DNA of 12,994 nucleotides from Terriglobia bacterium (GTDB lineage: Bacteria > Acidobacteriota > Terriglobia > UBA7540). The DNA lies in contig JALHUF010000277.1 in NCBI GenBank assembly GCA_022866195.1, positions 1-12,994 on the forward strand, in the 5' to 3' direction. The position numbers were made by a program, and so were the translations under genes. Below the pieces are notes generated by a model. The model saw only the letters and a list, made by a program, of their open reading frames with translations, was not told the origin of the DNA and did no database searches. Shown here in pieces: positions 821 to 7,567 of the stretch (positions are counted from its first letter, which is position 1; every line of letters starts with the position of its first letter).

Positions 821-934
821 CGGCGTTTGAATGCGGGAGGGTTGTCACGGCAAAGTTTTCGCAGACCGCCAAACGAATTCTTCCCTTCCCTGCCACTCAG
901 GAAAGCTCACCAATTCATTTTGGAGAATTTCACC

Positions 935-2962
935 ATGAAATCCATTATTCGACTGGGACTGATTTTGGGCGTGCTTGCCGCCAGCAACGTGGCGCATGCC
1001 AAACGCCCCATCACGTTTGAAGATTTGGCAAAGATCCAAAGGATTTCCGAGTCGCAGGTTTCGCCCGACGGCCGCTGGATCGCCTACGTCCAGGGCACGG
1101 TGGACCTGGAGGCCAACAAGACTGCCCGCCACATCTGGCTGATTCCCACCGAAGGCGGCGAACCTCGCCAGCTCACCCGCGGCGAAGGTTCCCACACTCG
1201 CCCGCGCTGGTGCCCGCACGGTCGGGAACTGGCGTTCATCTCGACGCGGGACGGCAAGTCGCAGGTGTGGGTCATTCCCGTCAACGGTGGCGAAGCCCGC
1301 CAGCTCACTTCGCTTTCCACCGAGGCCGAGGGCGTAGTGTGGGCGAAGAACAGCGACAATCTGCTCTTCACGTCCAAGGTCTTTCCGGACTGCGCCGACG
1401 ACGAGTGCAGCGCCAAGCGCCTGGAAGAGCGCGCTAAAAGCAAAGTGAAGGCGCAGATTATCGATGAGCTTCTGTTTCGCCATTGGGACGAGTACCGCGA
1501 CGGCAGGTACACGCACCTCTTCCTTGTTTCCGCTCAGGGCGGCAAGCCGCGCGACCTGACACCCGGCGTCGCAGTCGATTCTCCCACTTGGTTTCTGGGC
1601 GCGCCGGATGGTTACGCAATTTCTCCTGACGGCACGGAGGTCTGCTTCACCTCAAACCGTACCGGACGCGCTGCCTGGAGCACCAACAACGATCTCTACC
1701 TTGTCCCCGCTGCGGGCGGAGAAGCCAGGAACATCACCAAGGACAACTTGGGCTCTGACGCGGCGCCGCAGTATTCGCCCGACGGCCGCTACATCGCTTA
1801 CACCTCGCAGGCGCGCGACGGCTACGAATCCGATCTCCTGCGCTTGCGGGTCTACGATCGCCAAACCGGACAGGTGAAAGAGCTTACCCCGGGCTTCGAT
1901 CAGTGGGTAGACAGCTTCATGTGGGCGCCGGATTCCGACACCATCTACTTCACCGCTCCCGAACGCGGCCAGGAGCCGGTTTTTCAGACGCGCGTGAGCG
2001 CGCCGAAAGTGGAAAAGGTTCTGGGCGGGTCGAACAGCGACCTCCAGGTGATTCCGGGAGGCCGCGGGTTCGTCTGCACGCGCTCCAGCCTGACCCAGCC
2101 CGCAGAGGTTTACCGCCTGCTCCTGCCCAACGGCGTGCCCATGCAGGTGACGCACGCCAACGACGCGCTGCTGGCCGAATTCGACCTGAATCCGGCCGAA
2201 TCCGTGACCACCAAAGGCGCGCTGGGAGCGCAAATCCACAGCTTGCTCGTCAAGCCGCCGGGATTCGACCCCAACAAGAAATATCCCGGCTTGATGCTCA
2301 TTCACGGCGGACCGCAAGGCGCCTGGGACGACGTCTGGGGCTACCGCTGGAACGCGCAGATGTTTGCCGCGCACGGCTACGTCGTGTTGATGACCAACTT
2401 TCACGGCTCCACGGGCTACGGCCAGAAATTTGTCGAGCAGATTTCCGGCGATTGGGGTGGCGCCTGCTACGAGGATTTGCTGGCCGCGACCGATTACCTG
2501 GAGTCCCTGCCCTACGTGGACAAAACCCGCATGGGCGCGGCCGGCGCTTCTTTCGGCGGATTCATGATCAATTGGATTGCCGGCCACACCAACCGCTTCA
2601 AGGCTCTGGTCTCCCACGACGGTGTCTACGATAACCGCAGCATGTACGGCGAAACCGAGGAACTCTGGTTCCCCGAATGGGAGTTCAAGGCCCCGCCCTG
2701 GGAAAAGCCCGAGCTGCACGAAAAGTGGTCGCCCTCGAATTTCGTGCAGAACATCAAGACCCCCATGCTCGTCGTGGAAGGCGAACTGGACTATCGCGTG
2801 CCGGTCGGCCAGGCTTTCCAGCTCTTCACGGCACTGCAACGCCGCGGCGTGCCCTCGCGCCTGCTCTACTTCCCTGACGAAGGCCATTGGGTGAACAAAC
2901 CCCAGAACAGCCGGCTGTGGTACAAGACGGTGCTGGGGTGGCTGGACAAGTACTTGAAGTAG
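935..2962 (+). CDS. Secreted S9 family peptidase (prolyl oligopeptidase type, DPP5-like)
   Basis: This is a 675-residue serine peptidase predicted to act outside the cytoplasm, removing dipeptides or short peptides from oligopeptides. The start chosen is the ATG at 935: GGAG lies at 922-925 and the first 22 residues form a signal peptide (MKSIIRL, a hydrophobic core, then AHA). A TTG at 827 would put 36 extra residues before that signal. The N-terminal part carries repeated beta-propeller motifs (SPDGRWIAY, SPDGTEVCF, SPDGRYIAY). The C-terminal alpha/beta-hydrolase domain starts near the HGGPQGAWDD oxyanion segment. The catalytic triad is seen as Ser539 in GASFGG, Asp619 in GELDYR and His651 in DEGHWVNKPQNS. 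The last motif is typical of DPP5 and acylaminoacyl-peptidase types (S9C). The length matches that group. It follows the kinase by about 114 bp, and its stop codon touches the heptamer repeat array. Confidence 0.92.
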   Translation: MKSIIRLGLILGVLAASNVAHAKRPITFEDLAKIQRISESQVSPDGRWIAYVQGTVDLEANKTARHIWLIPTEGGEPRQLTRGEGSHTRPRWCPHGRELAFISTRDGKSQVWVIPVNGGEARQLTSLSTEAEGVVWAKNSDNLLFTSKVFPDCADDECSAKRLEERAKSKVKAQIIDELLFRHWDEYRDGRYTHLFLVSAQGGKPRDLTPGVAVDSPTWFLGAPDGYAISPDGTEVCFTSNRTGRAAWSTNNDLYLVPAAGGEARNITKDNLGSDAAPQYSPDGRYIAYTSQARDGYESDLLRLRVYDRQTGQVKELTPGFDQWVDSFMWAPDSDTIYFTAPERGQEPVFQTRVSAPKVEKVLGGSNSDLQVIPGGRGFVCTRSSLTQPAEVYRLLLPNGVPMQVTHANDALLAEFDLNPAESVTTKGALGAQIHSLLVKPPGFDPNKKYPGLMLIHGGPQGAWDDVWGYRWNAQMFAAHGYVVLMTNFHGSTGYGQKFVEQISGDWGGACYEDLLAATDYLESLPYVDKTRMGAAGASFGGFMINWIAGHTNRFKALVSHDGVYDNRSMYGETEELWFPEWEFKAPPWEKPELHEKWSPSNFVQNIKTPMLVVEGELDYRVPVGQAFQLFTALQRRGVPSRLLYFPDEGHWVNKPQNSRLWYKTVLGWLDKYLK

Positions 2963-3002
2963 TCGGCAGTCAGCAGTCGGCAGTCAGCAGTTGGCAGTCG
3001 GC
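2961..3002 (+). repeat. Left heptanucleotide tandem array (six AGTCRGC-type units)
   Basis: Six head-to-tail 7-bp units start at 2961, 2968, 2975, 2982, 2989 and 2996: AGTCGGC, AGTCAGC, AGTCGGC, AGTCAGC, AGTTGGC, AGTCGGC. The array starts inside the TAG stop of the S9 peptidase gene. Bases 2961-2986 are an exact inverted match of 3416-3441. Confidence 0.93.
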
Positions 3003-3032
3003 AGTGAGAGCGGCAGCCCTGCGGTTCATGGC

Positions 3033-3048
3033 CCCTTCCAGCGAAGGG
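3033..3048 (+). promoter_or_regulatory. Hairpin overlapping the ribosome binding site of the S23 gene
   Basis: CCCTTC (3033-3038), a CAGC loop and GAAGGG (3043-3048) form a perfect 6-bp stem. The right arm contains the upstream part of the purine-rich ribosome binding region (GGGAGAAGGA, 3046-3055) of the gene starting at 3056. Folding could limit translation. It could also be chance in GC-rich DNA. Confidence 0.4.
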
Positions 3049-3055
3049 AGAAGGA

Positions 3056-3418
3056 ATGCAGCACTTCACCGAACTTAAGGTATGGCAGAGAAGCCACGTG
3101 CTGGTTCTAAACCTCTATCGACTCACATCACGGTTTCCGGCGGATGAGCGGTTTGGTTTGACCTCCCAACTCCGCCGTGCCGCGGCATCCGTTCCAACCA
3201 ACATAGCAGAGGGCGCCAAGCGCCAGGGGAAGCAAGACTACGCGCGCTTCCTCAATATTGCCCAGGGATCTCTTGCAGAAACGGAATACCTTGTTATGCT
3301 GAGCCGGGACCTGGGATATCTGGCTCCCGAAAAAGCTGAGGAGCCGCTCTCCGAGGTATCTGAGATTGCCGGGATGTTACACGCCCTGCGCCGAAAGGTG
3401 GAAGGCAGCAGCTCTTGA
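3056..3418 (+). CDS. Four-helix-bundle protein (S23/23S rRNA intervening-sequence protein family)
   Basis: This 120-residue protein has the hallmarks of the S23/IVP family (TIGR02436-type): FTELKVWQ near the N-terminus, FPADERFGLTSQLRRAA around residues 28-44, SVPTNIAEGAKR, and a FLNIAQGSLAETEYL helix. The family is usually 115-125 residues, so this copy looks intact. Members occur inside intervening sequences of some 23S rRNA genes and, more widely, as isolated genes. They fold as a four-helix bundle (and form a pentamer where solved), and their biochemical role is unsettled. The ATG at 3056 is preceded by a strong purine-rich ribosome binding site. The TGA (3416-3418) forms the first bases of the right inverted repeat. 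It lies between the S9 peptidase and the aminotransferase, with no apparent functional link to either, which suggests an inserted unit. Confidence 0.9.
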   Translation: MQHFTELKVWQRSHVLVLNLYRLTSRFPADERFGLTSQLRRAAASVPTNIAEGAKRQGKQDYARFLNIAQGSLAETEYLVMLSRDLGYLAPEKAEEPLSEVSEIAGMLHALRRKVEGSSS

Positions 3419-3448
3419 CTGCCGACTGCTGACTGCCGACTGCCAACT
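3414..3448 (-). repeat. Right heptanucleotide array, inverted relative to the left array
   Basis: Read on the minus strand from 3448, the units are AGTTGGC, AGTCGGC, AGTCAGC, AGTCGGC and a decayed AGTCAAG. The order matches the left array exactly over 26 bp (3441-3416). The array overlaps the TGA stop of the S23 gene and ends 23 bp before the aminotransferase ribosome binding site. Confidence 0.92.
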
Positions 3449-3483
3449 TGCTACGCATCGCACGTTGATCGAGGAGTCCAAAA

Positions 3484-4773
3484 ATGACCAAGGACGAAAT
3501 CCTTCAGAAGCATCAAGCCTATTTGTGGAAGTGCGTGACGACGTACTACAAAGACCCGCTGGTGATTGACCGCGCCAAGGGGCAGTACGTTTACGACCTC
3601 GAGGGCCGGCAATATCTGGACTTTCTCGGGGGCATCGTGACCATCAGCGTCGGCCACGCGAACGAGAAGGTGACGGCCAAGCTCAAGGCGCAGATTGATC
3701 GCGTCCAGCACACCTCGACGCTCTTCCCCACCGAAGCCATCGTCGCCCTGGCGGAGAAGGTGGCCCAGATTGCGCCCGGCCAACTCAAGAAGTGCTACTT
3801 CACCAACAGCGGCACGGAAGCCAACGAAGTCGCGGTGCTCGCCGCGCGCATCTACACGGGCAACTACGAGATGGTCACGCTGCGCCACGGCTACAGCGGC
3901 CACTCGCAGCTCACCAAGTCCATGACCGGCCTGCACACCTGGCGCAAGGCCGGAGTGATTCCTTACGGCGTCGTGCACGCGCCGGGGCCGTATTGCTACC
4001 GCTGCCCGTACGGGCTGACATATCCGACCTGCGAGCTCCACTGCGCCAAAGACATCGAGGAAGTCATCAAGACGTCAACCTGCGGCGCCATCGCCGGCAT
4101 GCTCGCGGAGACCATTCAGGGCCTGGGCGGCTTCATTGTTCCCCCGCCGGGCTACTTCAAGATTGTTGCCAACATTGTGCGCAACTACGGCGGGCTATTT
4201 ATTGCCGACGAGGTACAAACCGCCTGGGGACGTACGGGCAAGAAGTGGTGGGGGATCGAACACTGGGAAGTCGAACCAGACATCATCACCTCCGCCAAGA
4301 GCATGGCCAACGGCTTCCCCATCGGGTTGACCCTCACGCGCCCCGAAATCGCCGACGCGTACAAGGGTCTGACGATTTCCACCTTCGGCGGCAATCCCAT
4401 GGCCTGCGTCGCCGCCAAGGCCACCATCGACCTGATCGAAGAAGAGCGCTTGATAGACAATGCACACGAAATGGGCAACCACTTCCGGCAAGGCCTGGGA
4501 GCGCTGAAGGAAAAGCACGCCATCGTCGGCGACGTGCGCGGCATGGGATTGATGCAGGGCCTCGAGCTGGTGAAAGACCGGAAGACCAAGGAGCCGGGGA
4601 CCGACCTTGCCGGGCGTTTCATGGAACGCACACGCGCCCACGGCCTGATCGTCGGCCGCGGCGGCCTCTACGCCAACGTCATCCGCATGTCGCCGCCACT
4701 CAATATTGGGATGGCCGATATCGACGCGGCGCTCGCCATAATCGACAAGAGCTTGGCGGAAACGACAGCGTAG
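3484..4773 (+). CDS. Class III PLP-dependent aminotransferase (AGXT2-like)
   Basis: This 429-residue fold-type I aminotransferase transfers an amino group between an amino acid or omega-amino acid and an oxo-acid in the cytoplasm. The ATG at 3484 has GAGGAG 7 bp upstream. The phosphate-cradle motif NSGTEAN lies near residues 108-114. Asp242 in IADEVQTAWGRTG should contact the pyridine nitrogen, and Lys272 in TSAKSMANGFP should form the Schiff base. The closest family by eye is alanine-glyoxylate/beta-aminoisobutyrate aminotransferase 2, known in bacteria as generic 'aspartate aminotransferase family' proteins; the exact substrate cannot be read from the sequence. Two oddities stand out. LAETIQGLGG replaces the usual AEPIQG, and there are four closely spaced cysteines (171, 174, 183, 187). 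The TAG stop lies in a GTAG REP-like head. Confidence 0.9.
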   Translation: MTKDEILQKHQAYLWKCVTTYYKDPLVIDRAKGQYVYDLEGRQYLDFLGGIVTISVGHANEKVTAKLKAQIDRVQHTSTLFPTEAIVALAEKVAQIAPGQLKKCYFTNSGTEANEVAVLAARIYTGNYEMVTLRHGYSGHSQLTKSMTGLHTWRKAGVIPYGVVHAPGPYCYRCPYGLTYPTCELHCAKDIEEVIKTSTCGAIAGMLAETIQGLGGFIVPPPGYFKIVANIVRNYGGLFIADEVQTAWGRTGKKWWGIEHWEVEPDIITSAKSMANGFPIGLTLTRPEIADAYKGLTISTFGGNPMACVAAKATIDLIEEERLIDNAHEMGNHFRQGLGALKEKHAIVGDVRGMGLMQGLELVKDRKTKEPGTDLAGRFMERTRAHGLIVGRGGLYANVIRMSPPLNIGMADIDAALAIIDKSLAETTA

Positions 4774-4888: not shown

Positions 4889-5068
4889 AGGAACGGGCAG
4901 GCCGTCTGCGATGAGGCTTGCGACGTAAAGCTGGATCGCCTCGCGGATGTTCTGAATCCCTTCTTCGATGCCCTCGCTTTGGGTATGGCAACCCGGCAGC
5001 ACCGGGCAAAAGACGTGGTAACCGCCCTCATCCTCTTTTTCGAAAATCACCGTAAACCGGTGAGCCAC
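4853..5068 (-). CDS. HicB-like antitoxin domain protein, apparently without HicA
   Basis: This 71-residue protein resembles the HicB N-terminal fold: FTVIFEKEDEGGYHVFCPVLPGCHTQ, then a helix IQNIREAIQLYVASL and GLPVPV. HicB antitoxins bind and neutralise the HicA mRNA interferase. The GTG start (5068-5066) is the first in frame after a stop (5074-5072) and has GAGGG 7 bases upstream. There is no C-terminal helix-turn-helix or ribbon-helix-helix, as in the short HicB-only proteins. No HicA-like ORF lies on either side; the upstream DNA is REP-like repeats and then the oppositely oriented M28 gene. The last codons (VAGAAVDDRRR and stop) are encoded by or directly abut a REP-like hairpin, so the tail may be repeat-derived. 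It may be a solitary HicB-domain protein rather than a working antitoxin. Confidence 0.78.
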   Translation of the reverse strand: MAHRFTVIFEKEDEGGYHVFCPVLPGCHTQSEGIEEGIQNIREAIQLYVASLIADGLPVPVAGAAVDDRRR

Positions 5069-5124
5069 AGGTCAGCCCTCATTGTGTTATTCTAACGCGC
5101 TTTGTTGGCCGCGACACGGCGAAA

Positions 5125-5194
5125 GTAGCGGCGGCCCTTAGGCTGCCACCTGCCCGCCTGACCTGTCCCGATTTGCCGGGAAGGCGGGCGCTAC
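5125..5194. repeat. BIME-like pair of hairpins capped by GTAG and CTAC (unit B)
   Basis: GTAG (5125-5128) is followed by GGCGGCC (5130-5136) facing GGCTGCC (5141-5147), with one G-T pair and a CTTA loop. A larger hairpin follows: GCCCGCCT (5153-5160) with AGGCGGGC (5182-5189), and inside it TCCCG (5166-5170) with CGGGA (5177-5181). CTAC (5191-5194) closes the unit. Confidence 0.65.
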
Positions 5195-5201
5195 GGCACC
5201 G

Positions 5202-5249
5202 GTAGGGGCGGCCTCTGGCCGCCCGCGGGAGGGCAGAGCCCTCCCCTAC
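5202..5249. repeat. BIME-like pair of hairpins capped by GTAG and CTAC (unit C)
   Basis: GTAG (5202-5205) is followed by an 8-bp stem (5206-5213/5217-5224, loop TCT), a second 8-bp stem (5227-5234/5238-5245, loop AGA) and CTAC (5246-5249). It lies 7 bp after unit B. The stem sequences differ but the architecture is the same. Confidence 0.72.
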
Positions 5250-5254
5250 CCAAC

Positions 5255-5274
5255 CGGCGATGCGGACATCGCCG
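5255..5274. repeat. Single hairpin adjoining the REP-like cluster
   Basis: CGGCGATG (5255-5262), loop CGGA, and CATCGCCG (5267-5274) give a perfect 8-bp stem. It lies 23 bp before the M28 start codon and just upstream of its ribosome binding site. It lacks GTAG/CTAC caps, so it may be a decayed member or a leader structure of the M28 mRNA. Confidence 0.55.
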
Positions 5275-5296
5275 CCACAGTTCCACGGGAGGTCTT

Positions 5297-7567
5297 ATGC
5301 ACCGCTTTGTGCTGGTTGTTCTCTTCGTTCTGATGAGCCTTGTGCTGGGGACGGCACAAACCGGCCCCGCGCAGGCGCTCGGCGGCTACGCGGATGAGGC
5401 CGCGCGTGTCGAGCGCGACTGGGAGGCGAAGTTTCAGGCGATTCCCACGCCCGAGAACCTGCGCGAGTATACGCGGCGGCTTTCCGCGCGCCCGCATCAT
5501 GTCGGCTCGCCTTACGACAAAGACAACGCCGAATGGCTCCTGGCCAAGTTCAAAGAGTGGGGGCTCGACGCGCACATCGAAACGTTCGAGGTCCTCTTCC
5601 CCACGCCCAAGGAGCGGCTGGTGGAGCTGGTCGAGCCCACCAAGTTCGTCGCCAAGCTCCAGGAGCCGACGGTTGCGGTTGACCCCACCTCCAGTCAGCA
5701 CGACGAGCAACTGCCCACCTACAACGCTTACTCGGCCGACGGTGACGTTACCGCACCGCTCGTATATGTGAACTACGGCGTGCCGGAAGATTACGAGAAG
5801 CTGGAGCGGCTAGGCGTTTCCGTCAAGGGAGCGATTGTCATTGCCCGCTATGGCGAGTCGTGGCGCGGCATCAAGCCCAAGGTCGCGGCCGAACACGGCG
5901 CGCTGGGCTGCCTGATTTATTCCGACCCGCGCGATGACGGCTATTTCGAAGGCGAGGTATTTCCCCAGGGCGCCTGGCGTCCGCCGGACGGCGTGCAGCG
6001 CGGCAGCGTGATGGACATGGTGATTCATCCCGGCGACCCGTTGACCCCTGCGGTCGGCGCGACGAAAGACGCCAAGCGGTTGGCCTTGAGCGAGGCGCAG
6101 GTATTCACGAAGATTCCCACCCTTCCCATTTCCTACGGCGACGCTCAGCCATTGCTCGCGGCGCTCAAAGGCCCTGTGGCTCCCGAGCCGTGGCGCGGCG
6201 CGCTGCCGATCACTTACCGCATCGGTCCTGGCCCCGCCAAGGTGCATTTGAAAGTCAGAGCCAATTGGGACCTCAAAACGATCTACAACGTCATCGTCAG
6301 GATTCCCGGCGCGGTCTATCCCGACGAGTGGATCGTCCGCGGCAATCATCACGATGCCTGGGTCAGCGGCGCCCAAGACCCGGACTCGGCCATGGCAGCC
6401 GAACTGGAAGAGGCGCGTGCCCTGGCGGAACTGCTGAGGCAAGGCTGGAAGCCGAAGCGCACTATCATCTACTGCGCCTGGGACGGCGAGGAGGAGGGGC
6501 TGCTCGGCTCGACGGAGTGGGCGGAAACGCACGCGGCGGAGCTGCGCGCGCATGCGGTTGCCTATATCAACAGTGATGCCAACGGTCGCGGCTACTTCCA
6601 CGCCGGCGGCTCGCACACGCTCGAGAAATTCATCAACAGCGTGGCGCGGGATATCACGGACCCCGAAAAGAAGATTCCCGTCTGGAAGCGCAGCCAGCTA
6701 GCGCGCATCGCCCGGGCCGAGGCGCCCGAGGAGCGCGAAGAAGCCCGCACCCGGCCTGACTTGCGCATCGGCGCGCTGGGCTCTGGCTCCGACTACACGG
6801 TTTTCCTCGACCACCTGGGCGTGGCCACCCTCAACCTTGGTTACGGGGGAGAAGATGGCGGCGGCATTTACCATTCCATCTACGATGACTTCTATTGGTA
6901 CACTCACTTCTCAGATACCGATTTCGTTTATGGCCGCACCCTGGCCCAAACCATCGGTACGGCCGTGATGCGTCTGGCCGATGCCGAGCTGTTGCCCTTT
7001 GATTTCACGAACTTTGCCGACACGGTGCGCAAGTACGCCCAGGAACTCAGCAAGCTTCTGAAAGCCAAGCAGGACGAAATTCGGGAGCGCAACCGGCAAA
7101 TCGAGGAAGGCGTCTTCGCCGCTACGGCGGATCCCAAGGAGACGTCCGTCCCGCCGACGGTCGAAGAAGTCCCACCCCACTTGAACTTCGCGCCGCTCGA
7201 GAACGCCGTGGAGGCGCTGGCGCGCGGCGCCGAGCATTACCAGACAGCGTGGCAGAAAGCCCACGAGAATGGTGGAGCGGCGTTGGGCCGTGCCTCGTTC
7301 CGAGCGGTGAATGCGAAGCTCATCGAGAGTGAGCGTCGGCTGACCAGCCCCGACGGCCTGCCGGGCCGCCCGTGGTTCAAACATCAGATTTACGCCCCGG
7401 GCGCCTATACGGGTTACGGCGTGAAGACCATCCCCGGCGTGCGCGAGGCCATCGAGCAGAAAAAGTGGCAAGAGGCCGAGGCCCAAGTCGGGCGCGTGGC
7501 CCACATCCTGACGGACGAGGCGGCGTTGATTGAATCCGCCGCCAGCGAGTTGGAGAAGCTTCTGTAG
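5297..7567 (+). CDS. Secreted M28 family zinc peptidase (glutamate carboxypeptidase II/TfR-like)
   Basis: This 756-residue zinc exopeptidase is predicted to be exported; family members release C-terminal acidic or other residues from peptides. The ATG at 5297 has GGAGG at 5288-5292 and a hydrophobic signal peptide over about residues 1-20. A protease-associated (PA) domain follows around residues 150-280. The di-zinc site is complete by alignment to the GCPII family: His351 in GNHHDAW, bridging Asp361 in AQDPDSAMA, catalytic Glu398 and ligand Glu399 in WDGEEEGLLGSTEW, Asp427 in INSDANGRG and His526 in YHSIYDDFYW. The C-terminal about 170 residues look like the helical TfR-like dimerisation domain. 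The length matches full-size M28B enzymes. It stands alone behind the REP-like cluster, and its TAG stop again lies in GTAG next to a hairpin. Confidence 0.93.
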   Translation: MHRFVLVVLFVLMSLVLGTAQTGPAQALGGYADEAARVERDWEAKFQAIPTPENLREYTRRLSARPHHVGSPYDKDNAEWLLAKFKEWGLDAHIETFEVLFPTPKERLVELVEPTKFVAKLQEPTVAVDPTSSQHDEQLPTYNAYSADGDVTAPLVYVNYGVPEDYEKLERLGVSVKGAIVIARYGESWRGIKPKVAAEHGALGCLIYSDPRDDGYFEGEVFPQGAWRPPDGVQRGSVMDMVIHPGDPLTPAVGATKDAKRLALSEAQVFTKIPTLPISYGDAQPLLAALKGPVAPEPWRGALPITYRIGPGPAKVHLKVRANWDLKTIYNVIVRIPGAVYPDEWIVRGNHHDAWVSGAQDPDSAMAAELEEARALAELLRQGWKPKRTIIYCAWDGEEEGLLGSTEWAETHAAELRAHAVAYINSDANGRGYFHAGGSHTLEKFINSVARDITDPEKKIPVWKRSQLARIARAEAPEEREEARTRPDLRIGALGSGSDYTVFLDHLGVATLNLGYGGEDGGGIYHSIYDDFYWYTHFSDTDFVYGRTLAQTIGTAVMRLADAELLPFDFTNFADTVRKYAQELSKLLKAKQDEIRERNRQIEEGVFAATADPKETSVPPTVEEVPPHLNFAPLENAVEALARGAEHYQTAWQKAHENGGAALGRASFRAVNAKLIESERRLTSPDGLPGRPWFKHQIYAPGAYTGYGVKTIPGVREAIEQKKWQEAEAQVGRVAHILTDEAALIESAASELEKLL

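What the first reader, a model, noticed from the sequence alone, without database searches (positions are those of the whole stretch)
2959..3454. S23 four-helix-bundle gene enclosed by perfect 26-bp inverted heptamer arrays between two protein genes
Six AGTCRGC-type 7-bp units (2961-3002) face four to five inverted units (3448-3414), giving a 26-bp perfect inverted match directly at both stop codons. 23S rRNA intervening sequences have a stem-flanked S23 ORF that RNase III removes (established for Leptospira and Coxiella types). Here the same architecture lies between an S9 peptidase and an aminotransferase gene. It could be a free-living, possibly mobile or RNA-excised element. The heptamer arrays may be its termini or landing sites.
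Basis: partly seen in the sequence, partly recalled or inferred. Interest (0 to 1): 0.75.

Follow-up and report, generated by a model that had tools for sequence, protein, structure and literature searches.

The report
Mobile S23 element with heptamer ends
This small gene appears to sit inside a tiny mobile DNA element whose two ends are mirror-image runs of a 7-letter repeat; similar elements occur in many bacterial groups, related proteins tend to share the same 7-letter word, and gene-less mini-copies are found beside them.

Summary
In detail: an S23 (TIGR02436/PF05635) gene at 3056-3418 is enclosed by inverted heptamer arrays (2961-3005, 3416-3448) with a 26-bp perfect match. It is one case of a general architecture. 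All 12 S23 genes of this genome with both flanks present have inverted 7- or 8-bp repeats, each with its own unit. So do 36 of 41 rows from relatives (numeric cut), and 51 of 79 loci from many phyla exceed the null 95%. The unit tracks the S23 protein and its orientation (Mantel r 0.40, 0 of 2000 permutations) while the spacers beside it do not align. S23-less arrays often use the same units, and all 32 that are paired and matched (21 mini-elements) have the same orientation; sampled S23-free genomes show 1 such array in 277 kb. Cyanobacterial plasmids give filled and empty alleles, the best with 97-98% identical flanks, and one site also holds an S23-less mini-element. I read this as a free-standing mobile S23 element; rRNA intervening sequences look like rRNA-resident cousins (the Coxiella one has heptamers too). 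Inferred, not shown: that S23 binds its own heptamer, that another enzyme cuts, and that RNase III trims the stem. The window copy itself was not seen to move.

The parts
2961..3005 (+). left terminal array: 6.4 inward-pointing heptamers AGT(C/T)(G/A)GC
   Evidence: TRF and inverted-repeat search
3056..3418 (+). S23 / four-helix-bundle protein gene, 120 aa
   Evidence: PF05635 2e-38, TIGR02436 4.6e-37; nearest solved structure 2gsc, E 2.9e-25, 5 chains
3416..3448 (-). right terminal array, the same heptamers inverted; 26 bp (3416-3441) perfectly complementary to 2961-2986
2958..3450 (+). whole element (approximate; no close array-free allele of this junction was found, so the exact ends are not fixed)
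   Evidence: predicted RNA closing stem z -5.5
827..2962 (+). upstream neighbour: ORF of an S9 prolyl oligopeptidase family gene; its stop codon overlaps the left array (not part of the element)
   Evidence: PF00326 2.2e-66
3484..4773 (+). downstream neighbour: class-III aminotransferase gene (not part of the element)
   Evidence: PF00202 2.4e-95

Best explanation
An S23 element: a roughly 0.4-0.6 kb mobile element made of an S23 four-helix-bundle gene between two inward-pointing inverted arrays of a 7-bp (sometimes 8-bp) unit. SHOWN by comparison: the architecture is general; unit sequence and orientation follow the S23 protein; S23-less mini-elements with S23-linked units and the same orientation share the genomes; whole elements are present or absent at otherwise near-identical plasmid sites; the protein is under purifying selection in the pairs that could be measured; between tandem neighbours the gene nearly always points their way. 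INFERRED: the S23 protein (five chains in each of its two solved relatives, hence perhaps a pentamer) binds its own heptamers in the hairpin that the arrays can form, as DNA during movement and/or as RNA, and so marks both full and mini-elements for mobilisation. The element's only gene has no transposase domain, so another enzyme must cut and join; a Y1 (HUH) transposase acting in trans is the first candidate, and an RVT_1 reverse transcriptase is not required. Inside a transcription unit RNase III probably trims the stem, as reported for the Coxiella intervening sequence, which would make insertion between cotranscribed genes tolerable. The S23-bearing rRNA intervening sequences would be the same kind of element lodged in rRNA.
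For: Own genome: 12 of 12 S23 genes with both flanks have inverted repeats, each with a different unit (TRF sees both arms in 11; the right arm of L006 was seen by inverted alignment); the 13th has the left array and then the contig ends. Relatives: 36 of 41 rows above the null 95%; G020 and G024: 33 of 40 rows (four genes overlap, one gene gives two rows). Many phyla: 51 of 79 above the null 95%, 36 of 79 above 99%; 39 of 65 loci have a period-7 array within 200 bp against 1 of 65 at 1.0-1.2 kb, every other period 5 or fewer. Unit follows protein, 80 distinct genes, 3,137 pairs with non-orthologous flanks: shared unit in 11 of 2,681 pairs below 50% protein identity, 4 of 286 at 50-60%, 28 of 125 at 60-70%, 15 of 42 at 70-80%, 1 of 3 above; Mantel r 0.405, 0 of 2,000 permutations, reversed orientation r 0.10 (de-duplicated rerun). 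Spacers of such pairs do not align (0.16 vs 0.15 control, 126 pairs). S23-less arrays: 50 of 78 match an S23-linked unit (reversed-letter control 8), 51 of 78 have an inverted partner, 32 of 32 paired-and-matched arrays (21 elements) in the same orientation. Density follows S23 count over 28 genomes, rho 0.69; 1 array in 277 kb of nine S23-free genomes. Mobility: Trichormus plasmid C and Scytonema filled; Aulosira, Nostoc linckia and Fremyella plasmids empty, 97-98% identical flanks; filled/empty alleles at two further Nostoc junctions and one Calothrix junction, 90-96% overall identity; S23-less mini-element with the same unit at the first site in Brasilonema. dN/dS 0.04-0.14 in five pairs. 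Tandem neighbours: S23 co-directional 60 vs 2 (named), 30 vs 6 (own genome and relatives).
Against: No movement was observed, and for the plasmid alleles insertion was not separated from deletion by a phylogeny. Target duplication is unclear: 5-bp direct repeats fit at two sites (GTAAT; TTCTA, whose right copy may belong to the terminal unit), about 3 bp at a third, unresolved at two. Some S23 hits lack a found array: L099, L166, L178, L182, L194, L200; 28 of 79 named loci are not above the null 95%. In plasmids the right arm of Anabaena L354 is not obvious (inverted score 8); L352, L353 and L355 also scored only 7-9.5, where the compared stretch began after the S23 stop although the right array of L352 starts inside the ORF. 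Three S23-rich genomes show no array away from S23 in the stretch sampled (G002 40 kb, G016 18 kb, G023 20 kb). Relatives are not independent, so the Mantel and density tests overstate significance. Two of three sites compared between G003 and G000 carry elements with different units, which needs recurrent use of the same gaps. For Coxiella, PMC4990558 argues that the S23 protein is probably not expressed and that the RNA matters more (passages read).
Confidence: 0.72

Rival explanations
1. Hairpin first: heptamer arrays arise by replication slippage and fold-back copying on their own, and S23 ORFs home into pre-existing hairpins, as into rRNA helix tips.
For: Many inverted arrays lack S23; PMC4679880 reports a survey in which 7-nt repeats were the most abundant class in most genomes and polymerase slippage was proposed (passages read); one cas6-cas4 gap without S23 holds a short direct heptamer array (L365).
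Against: The empty plasmid alleles printed at sites 1, 2, 4 and 5 hold no array. Sampled S23-free genomes have almost no period-7/8 arrays while other periods are not scarcer there. Unit and orientation follow the S23 protein, and 32 of 32 paired-and-matched S23-less arrays keep that orientation.
Confidence: 0.1
2. Not mobile: S23 is an ordinary operon gene whose arrays are autoregulatory or RNase III sites, gained and lost as gene content changes.
For: Purifying selection and co-directional setting; the window copy is inherited at the same junction as in G003.
Against: Related elements with the same kind of unit at unrelated plasmid places and array-free alleles; S23-less copies, one at the same site as an S23 element; a different unit for each copy within the genome.
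Confidence: 0.11
3. Retroelement: S23 acts like its distant relative Avd, with a reverse transcriptase copying the element RNA.
For: Weak similarity to Avd models, below their cut-offs (bAvd 6.4e-05, DivGenRetAVD 2.3e-09); sense orientation among tandem genes.
Against: Twelve of 25 genomes with 5 or more S23 genes have no RVT_1 match, including G003 (17 S23) and G020 (23 S23). The one clear DGR-type Avd noticed (G024 contig 436, beside an RVT_1 match) has no array.
Confidence: 0.03

Closest known systems
rRNA intervening sequences with an S23 ORF (Leptospira recalled; Coxiella in PMC4990558 and CPR bacteria in PMC11270868, passages read)
   Same: S23 ORF inside a stem of terminal inverted repeats (28-bp stem, 428-nt element in Coxiella); three tandem heptamers GACAGAT at the 5' end in Coxiella; mobility suggested there citing Ralph and McClelland 1993
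   Different: Here between protein genes, with no Rfam match in the window or the other G000 S23 loci, many per genome with different units, plus S23-less mini-elements; the passages read treat the heptamers as a variable feature of one IVS
REPINs with RAYT (Y1) transposases (recalled)
   Same: A gene with its own terminal repeats and short palindromic non-autonomous copies in intergenic DNA
   Different: The protein is a four-helix bundle, not a Y1 transposase; termini are arrays of 7-8-bp units, not REP hairpins
Avd of diversity-generating retroelements
   Same: Weak similarity to Avd models
   Different: Works with a reverse transcriptase (recalled); the one Avd noticed here has no array
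Simple heptanucleotide repeats / STRR, including TAACTGA repeats of Beggiatoaceae, cyanobacteria and Bacteroidetes (PMC4679880, passages read)
   Same: Intergenic 7-nt arrays; TCAGTTA, the complement of TAACTGA, is in the left arm of the S23 element in L102
   Different: 'S23' does not occur in that paper and the repeats are described as direct repeats
Foldback transposons of eukaryotes (recalled)
   Same: Long terminal inverted repeats built of short tandem units
   Different: Unrelated proteins; far shorter units and elements here

Membership tests
S23 family (PF05635 / TIGR02436) | profile match over the curated cut-off | tested here: met
   131.3 vs 33.8 bits; 126.6 vs 24 bits
23S rRNA intervening sequence | located inside an rRNA gene | tested here: not met
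   0 Rfam matches at gathering score in the window and the 12 other S23 loci of G000; lies between S9 peptidase and aminotransferase genes
23S rRNA intervening sequence | S23 ORF enclosed by a terminal inverted-repeat stem | tested here: met
   (predicted)
23S rRNA intervening sequence | RNase III removes it from the transcript | not testable with these tools
   no RNA data; reported for Coxiella in PMC4990558 (passages read)
REPIN/RAYT | Y1 transposase encoded by the element | tested here: not met
   the element's only gene found is S23; the 9 Y1 matches of G000 were counted genome-wide
REPIN/RAYT | non-autonomous copies share termini with the full element | tested here: met
   50 of 78 S23-less arrays match an S23-linked unit, control 8; 32 of 32 paired-and-matched arrays in the same orientation; mini-element at a site filled elsewhere
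Diversity-generating retroelement Avd | match over the Avd cut-off and a nearby reverse transcriptase | tested here: not met
   37.5 vs cut-off 80 bits; bAvd 23.9 vs 40 bits; 0 RVT_1 matches in G000
Mobile element in general | filled and empty alleles of one site | tested here: met
   met for relatives in cyanobacterial plasmids; for the window copy only a decayed copy and diverged S23-less junctions were found
Mobile element in general | target-site duplication | tested here: inconclusive
   5-bp fits at two sites, about 3 bp at one, unresolved at two

The most novel reading that the evidence does not exclude
S23 elements are an undescribed, phylum-spanning class of minimal bacterial mobile elements: a small non-catalytic four-helix-bundle protein recognises its own 7-8-bp word, which is reiterated as inward-facing terminal arrays, and mobilises itself and S23-less mini-elements through a borrowed enzyme. 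S23-bearing rRNA intervening sequences are rRNA-resident members, and a large part of the long-puzzling heptamer repeats of bacterial genomes are their termini and remains.
Probability: 0.58. Interest if true: 0.95.

Novelty: categorically new. Interest (0 to 1): 0.88.

Why it matters
S23 four-helix-bundle genes are widespread and unexplained, and why heptamer arrays are so common in bacterial intergenic DNA is an open question. These data tie the two together and predict a protein-to-word code that a binding assay can test. They also offer an origin for S23-bearing rRNA intervening sequences, and describe an apparent mobile element that settles between cotranscribed genes without carrying a recognisable transposase.

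Tried and rejected
Rejected: the window element as an rRNA intervening sequence (no Rfam match); an RVT_1-dependent route; phage carriage (no match in 50,697 phage records); arrays as independent slippage products; one fixed heptamer as a landing site.

Led nowhere or weak: a close array-free allele of the S9-aminotransferase junction. Of 30 aminotransferase loci fetched (own included), 10 have the S9 end next door; besides the window, G003 has the decayed element, G002 an S23-less gap with short repeats, G031 149 bp without arrays but too diverged, and G019, G016, G036, G034, G029 and G037 other DNA. Presence/absence between G020 and G004: the mini-elements compared were shared, decayed or hard to align. 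Y1_Tnp as partner is only a correlation. The DGR Avd contrast rests on one case. Searches for S23 with heptamers, terminal inverted repeats or mobility (listings seen) gave PMC4990558 and PMC4679880 (passages read), PMC11270868 (one passage read: the S23 domain occurs in 16S and 23S rRNA insertions of CPR bacteria) and PMC5524665 (table passages only). One of ten search slots was unused; subscription papers and preprints are not held, so 'not in print' means only these searches.

Limits and dropped rows. One search's relatives are the best-scoring loci of a capped list plus S23 genes in fetched stretches; it lists one gene twice (L006 = L056), and only 13 of 54 rows exceed its 99th percentile, because unrelated genes share units. 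One search used 85 of 94 rows (dropped: L056, L175 duplicates; L099, L166, L178, L179, L182, L194, L200 without a found array); I later found five repeats among the 85, so reran it with 80. One search lost L181 and lost L302 (short flanks); near/far used 65 of 80. In one search the stretches of G003, G020 and G004 and part of G009 were chosen near S23 genes, so arrays within 300 bp of an S23 hit were left out; decayed S23 genes may have been missed. In one search no chance level was computed for having an inverted partner. No same-strand baseline for ordinary neighbours was computed; the orientation claim compares same with opposite within tandem pairs.
Full report
THE OBSERVATION. The window holds an S23 gene (3056-3418) between a left array of six heptamers (2961-3005) and a right array of the same heptamers inverted (3416-3448), with a 26-bp perfect match. 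The protein is a clear S23/TIGR02436 member. Its nearest solved structures are 2gsc and 2rld, five chains each. Folded as RNA, 2958-3452 closes on the two arrays (z -5.5, 0 of 100 shuffles as stable).

IT IS GENERAL IN THIS GENOME. The assembly (3.58 Mb, 727 contigs, 85% complete, unnamed) has 13 S23 genes. Twelve have both flanks. In 11 of them tandem-repeat search shows arrays of period 7 (period 8 in L010) on both sides; in L006 it shows the left array, and the right arm is seen by inverted alignment. L013 is cut by the contig end and has only its left, octamer array. The unit differs from gene to gene, for example AGTCGGC (window), AAAGTTG, AAAGGGT, ATTTTGG, GTGATTG and the octamer TCGGGCCA, and in each the right array is the inverse of the left.

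IT IS GENERAL BEYOND IT. Of 61 genomes (own plus 60 relatives), 50 have S23 matches. Comparing each gene's left flank with its own right flank, inverted, gives a median score of 20.75 against 9.5 for 640 mismatched pairs; counted from the printed list, 48 of 54 rows exceed the null 95th percentile, 12 of 13 rows of G000 and 36 of 41 of relatives. Only 13 of 54 exceed the 99th, because unrelated genes share units and inflate that tail. In G020 and G024, 33 of 40 rows exceed the null 95th. In 80 loci of named genomes (Bacteroidota, Chloroflexota, Planctomycetota, Acidobacteriota, Nitrospirota, Pseudomonadota and others; the best 80 of a capped scan), 51 of 79 exceed the 95th and 36 the 99th. Independently of pairing, 39 of 65 of these have a period-7 array within 200 bp of S23 and 1 of 65 at 1.0-1.2 kb; no other period exceeds 5 of 65.

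THE UNIT GOES WITH THE PROTEIN. For 80 distinct array-bearing genes and 3,137 pairs with non-orthologous flanks, a unit is shared by 11 of 2,681 pairs below 50% protein identity, 4 of 286 at 50-60%, 28 of 125 at 60-70%, 15 of 42 at 70-80% and 1 of 3 above. Mantel r is 0.405, no permutation of 2,000 above 0.10; with one array reversed r is 0.10 (a de-duplicated rerun, which gave 0.403). The spacers between array and ORF in such pairs do not align (0.16 against 0.15 for reversed spacers, 126 pairs; 0.15 against 0.14 in the 28 that share a unit). So unit and protein stay together where neighbouring DNA has lost all likeness. Recognition of the unit by the protein is the simplest reading, but it is inferred. 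The sequences are related, so the permutation count is not a true probability, and more than half of the pairs at 60-80% do not share a unit.

MINI-ELEMENTS. Seventy-eight period-7/8 arrays lie more than 300 bp from any S23 hit in the sampled stretches. Fifty-one have an inverted partner within 400 bp, 50 match an S23-linked unit (8 when the letters are reversed), and in all 32 that are paired and matched, which make up 21 elements, the arms point inward as in S23 elements. Array density away from S23 follows S23 count across 28 genomes (rho 0.69); nine S23-free genomes show one array in 277 kb, while arrays of other periods are not scarcer there. Against the trend, G002, G016 and G023 (19, 13 and 9 S23 genes) show none in the 40, 18 and 20 kb sampled. 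The test was not corrected for kinship.

THE WINDOW'S OWN JUNCTION. Of 30 aminotransferase loci fetched, 10 (own included) have the S9 end next door. G003 (aminotransferase 91% identical) has the same element with the same unit, but its S23 gene is internally deleted and interrupted by stops. G002 has 89 bp with no S23 and short heptamer-like repeats of another unit. G031 has 149 bp without arrays. G019, G016, G036, G034, G029 and G037 have other DNA between the two genes. At another intergenic site G003 has an S23 element with AGAAGTC-type units, G000 a mini-element with AGTTGAC/AGTCCAC units and G019 unrelated DNA; at a second, G003 has an octamer mini-element and G000 a heptamer one; at a third an octamer mini-element is shared by G003, G019 and G000 with some change of unit. 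The copies in this group thus look old, inherited and decaying, and the same gaps are used repeatedly.

MOBILITY. Of 72,556 plasmid records 34 match the window's S23, 32 of them cyanobacterial; 50,697 phage records have no match. Trichormus variabilis plasmid C (a second strain matches at 100%, listing only) and Scytonema NIES-4073 plasmid 1 carry an S23 element with AGGAGTC-type units between two genes of a conjugative plasmid. Aulosira laxa, Nostoc linckia and Fremyella plasmids, 97-98% identical around it, read straight through. Brasilonema has at that site an S23-less mini-element of the same unit, and Nostoc C052 plasmid E a truncated copy. Related elements sit at other plasmid places. 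Filled and empty alleles were also read at two further Nostoc plasmid junctions and a Calothrix one, where in the empty alleles the genes overlap by a base or lie up to 3 bp apart; a site in Aulosira plasmid 2 also differs but its left edge is unclear. Five-bp direct repeats fit two insertions, about 3 bp a third, and two are unresolved. Whether each difference is an insertion or a deletion was not settled by a phylogeny. In two CRISPR type I-D operons an S23 gene with heptamer arrays lies between cas6 and cas4; two related operons lack it. In Anabaena the right arm is not obvious.

SELECTION AND SETTING. dN/dS is 0.04-0.14 in five pairs (dS 0.8-2.3); two near-identical pairs are uninformative (0.31, 0.86), one has almost no change, and three are saturated. 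Between tandem neighbours (ORFs of 120 aa or more) S23 points the same way in 60 of 62 named loci and 30 of 36 of the own genome and relatives. With the closing stem this suggests life inside transcripts; RNase III trimming as in Coxiella is plausible but untested.

PARTNER. RVT_1 matches are absent in 12 of 25 genomes with five or more S23 genes. Y1 transposase matches are present in all 25 and correlate with S23 count over 61 genomes (rho 0.53; 0.42 after genome size), but five genomes have S23 without Y1. This is a lead, no more.

COMPARISON WITH THE KNOWN. The Coxiella 23S rRNA intervening sequence has an S23 ORF, a 28-bp terminal stem, three tandem heptamers GACAGAT at its 5' end, and RNase III excision (PMC4990558; passages read): the anatomy found here, lodged in rRNA. 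Its authors describe the heptamers as variable between strains, argue that the protein is probably not expressed there, and cite the idea that such sequences are mobile. The S23 domain is also reported in 16S and 23S rRNA insertions of CPR bacteria (PMC11270868, one passage read). [quoted passage not shown] the complement of that unit lies in the left arm of the S23 element in L102. In the searches listed under Tried and rejected I found no paper joining S23 genes with heptamer arrays outside the Coxiella case.

VERDICT. The finding is real and larger than stated. The class-level picture (protein-linked terminal heptamer arrays, mini-elements, filled and empty alleles) is supported by comparison. 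Binding, the cutting enzyme and RNA processing are inferred. I call it categorically new as a class of mobile element, with the caveat that S23-bearing rRNA intervening sequences are its known corner. On checking against the calls I lowered the main odds by a point or two, since some low-identity pairs do share units and insertion was not separated from deletion.

Noticed in passing
L102: The left arm of an S23 element carries TCAGTTATCAGTT, the complement of the TAACTGA repeats reported as unexplained in Beggiatoaceae, cyanobacteria and Bacteroidetes.
   Followed up: no
L010, L013, L118, L121, L122, L169, L173, L183, L201, L202; L103; L278, L279: A minority of S23 genes have units of other lengths: 8 bp in the first ten, 8/9 bp in L103, about 10 bp in two Bacteroidaceae loci. 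The period itself may be a clade trait.
   Followed up: partly
L179/L381 (G024 contig 436, about 5034-5360): An Avd-like gene over the bAvd cut-off beside a reverse transcriptase match, without heptamer arrays: a natural contrast to the S23 elements.
   Followed up: partly
L354 (Anabaena sp. 90 pANA02) and L359 (Pseudanabaena galeata pPg_01): S23 genes with heptamer arrays between cas6 and cas4 of type I-D CRISPR operons; the Anabaena left array is very long and its right inverse is not obvious.
   Followed up: partly
L364, between cas6 (ends 919) and cas4 (starts 1165): Dolichospermum has a different insert of about 245 bp with inverted ends (GTAGGTTGGGTT ... AACCCAACCTAC) in the same gap.
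   Followed up: no
L154 about 14807-15074, 2865-2946 and 145-222: Dispersed repeat families with several 75-99% copies in G019 and G000, apparently unrelated to the heptamer arrays.
   Followed up: no
L151:7986-8010 and L153:13440-13464: Two copies of an octamer array TCTTTGTGTCTTGGTG with inverted partners and no S23-linked unit; perhaps a mini-element family whose S23 partner is missing.
   Followed up: no
left arms of 80 S23 genes: The left (upstream) arm is purine-rich on the S23 coding strand (A 28%, G 35%, T 22%, C 14.5%).
   Followed up: no
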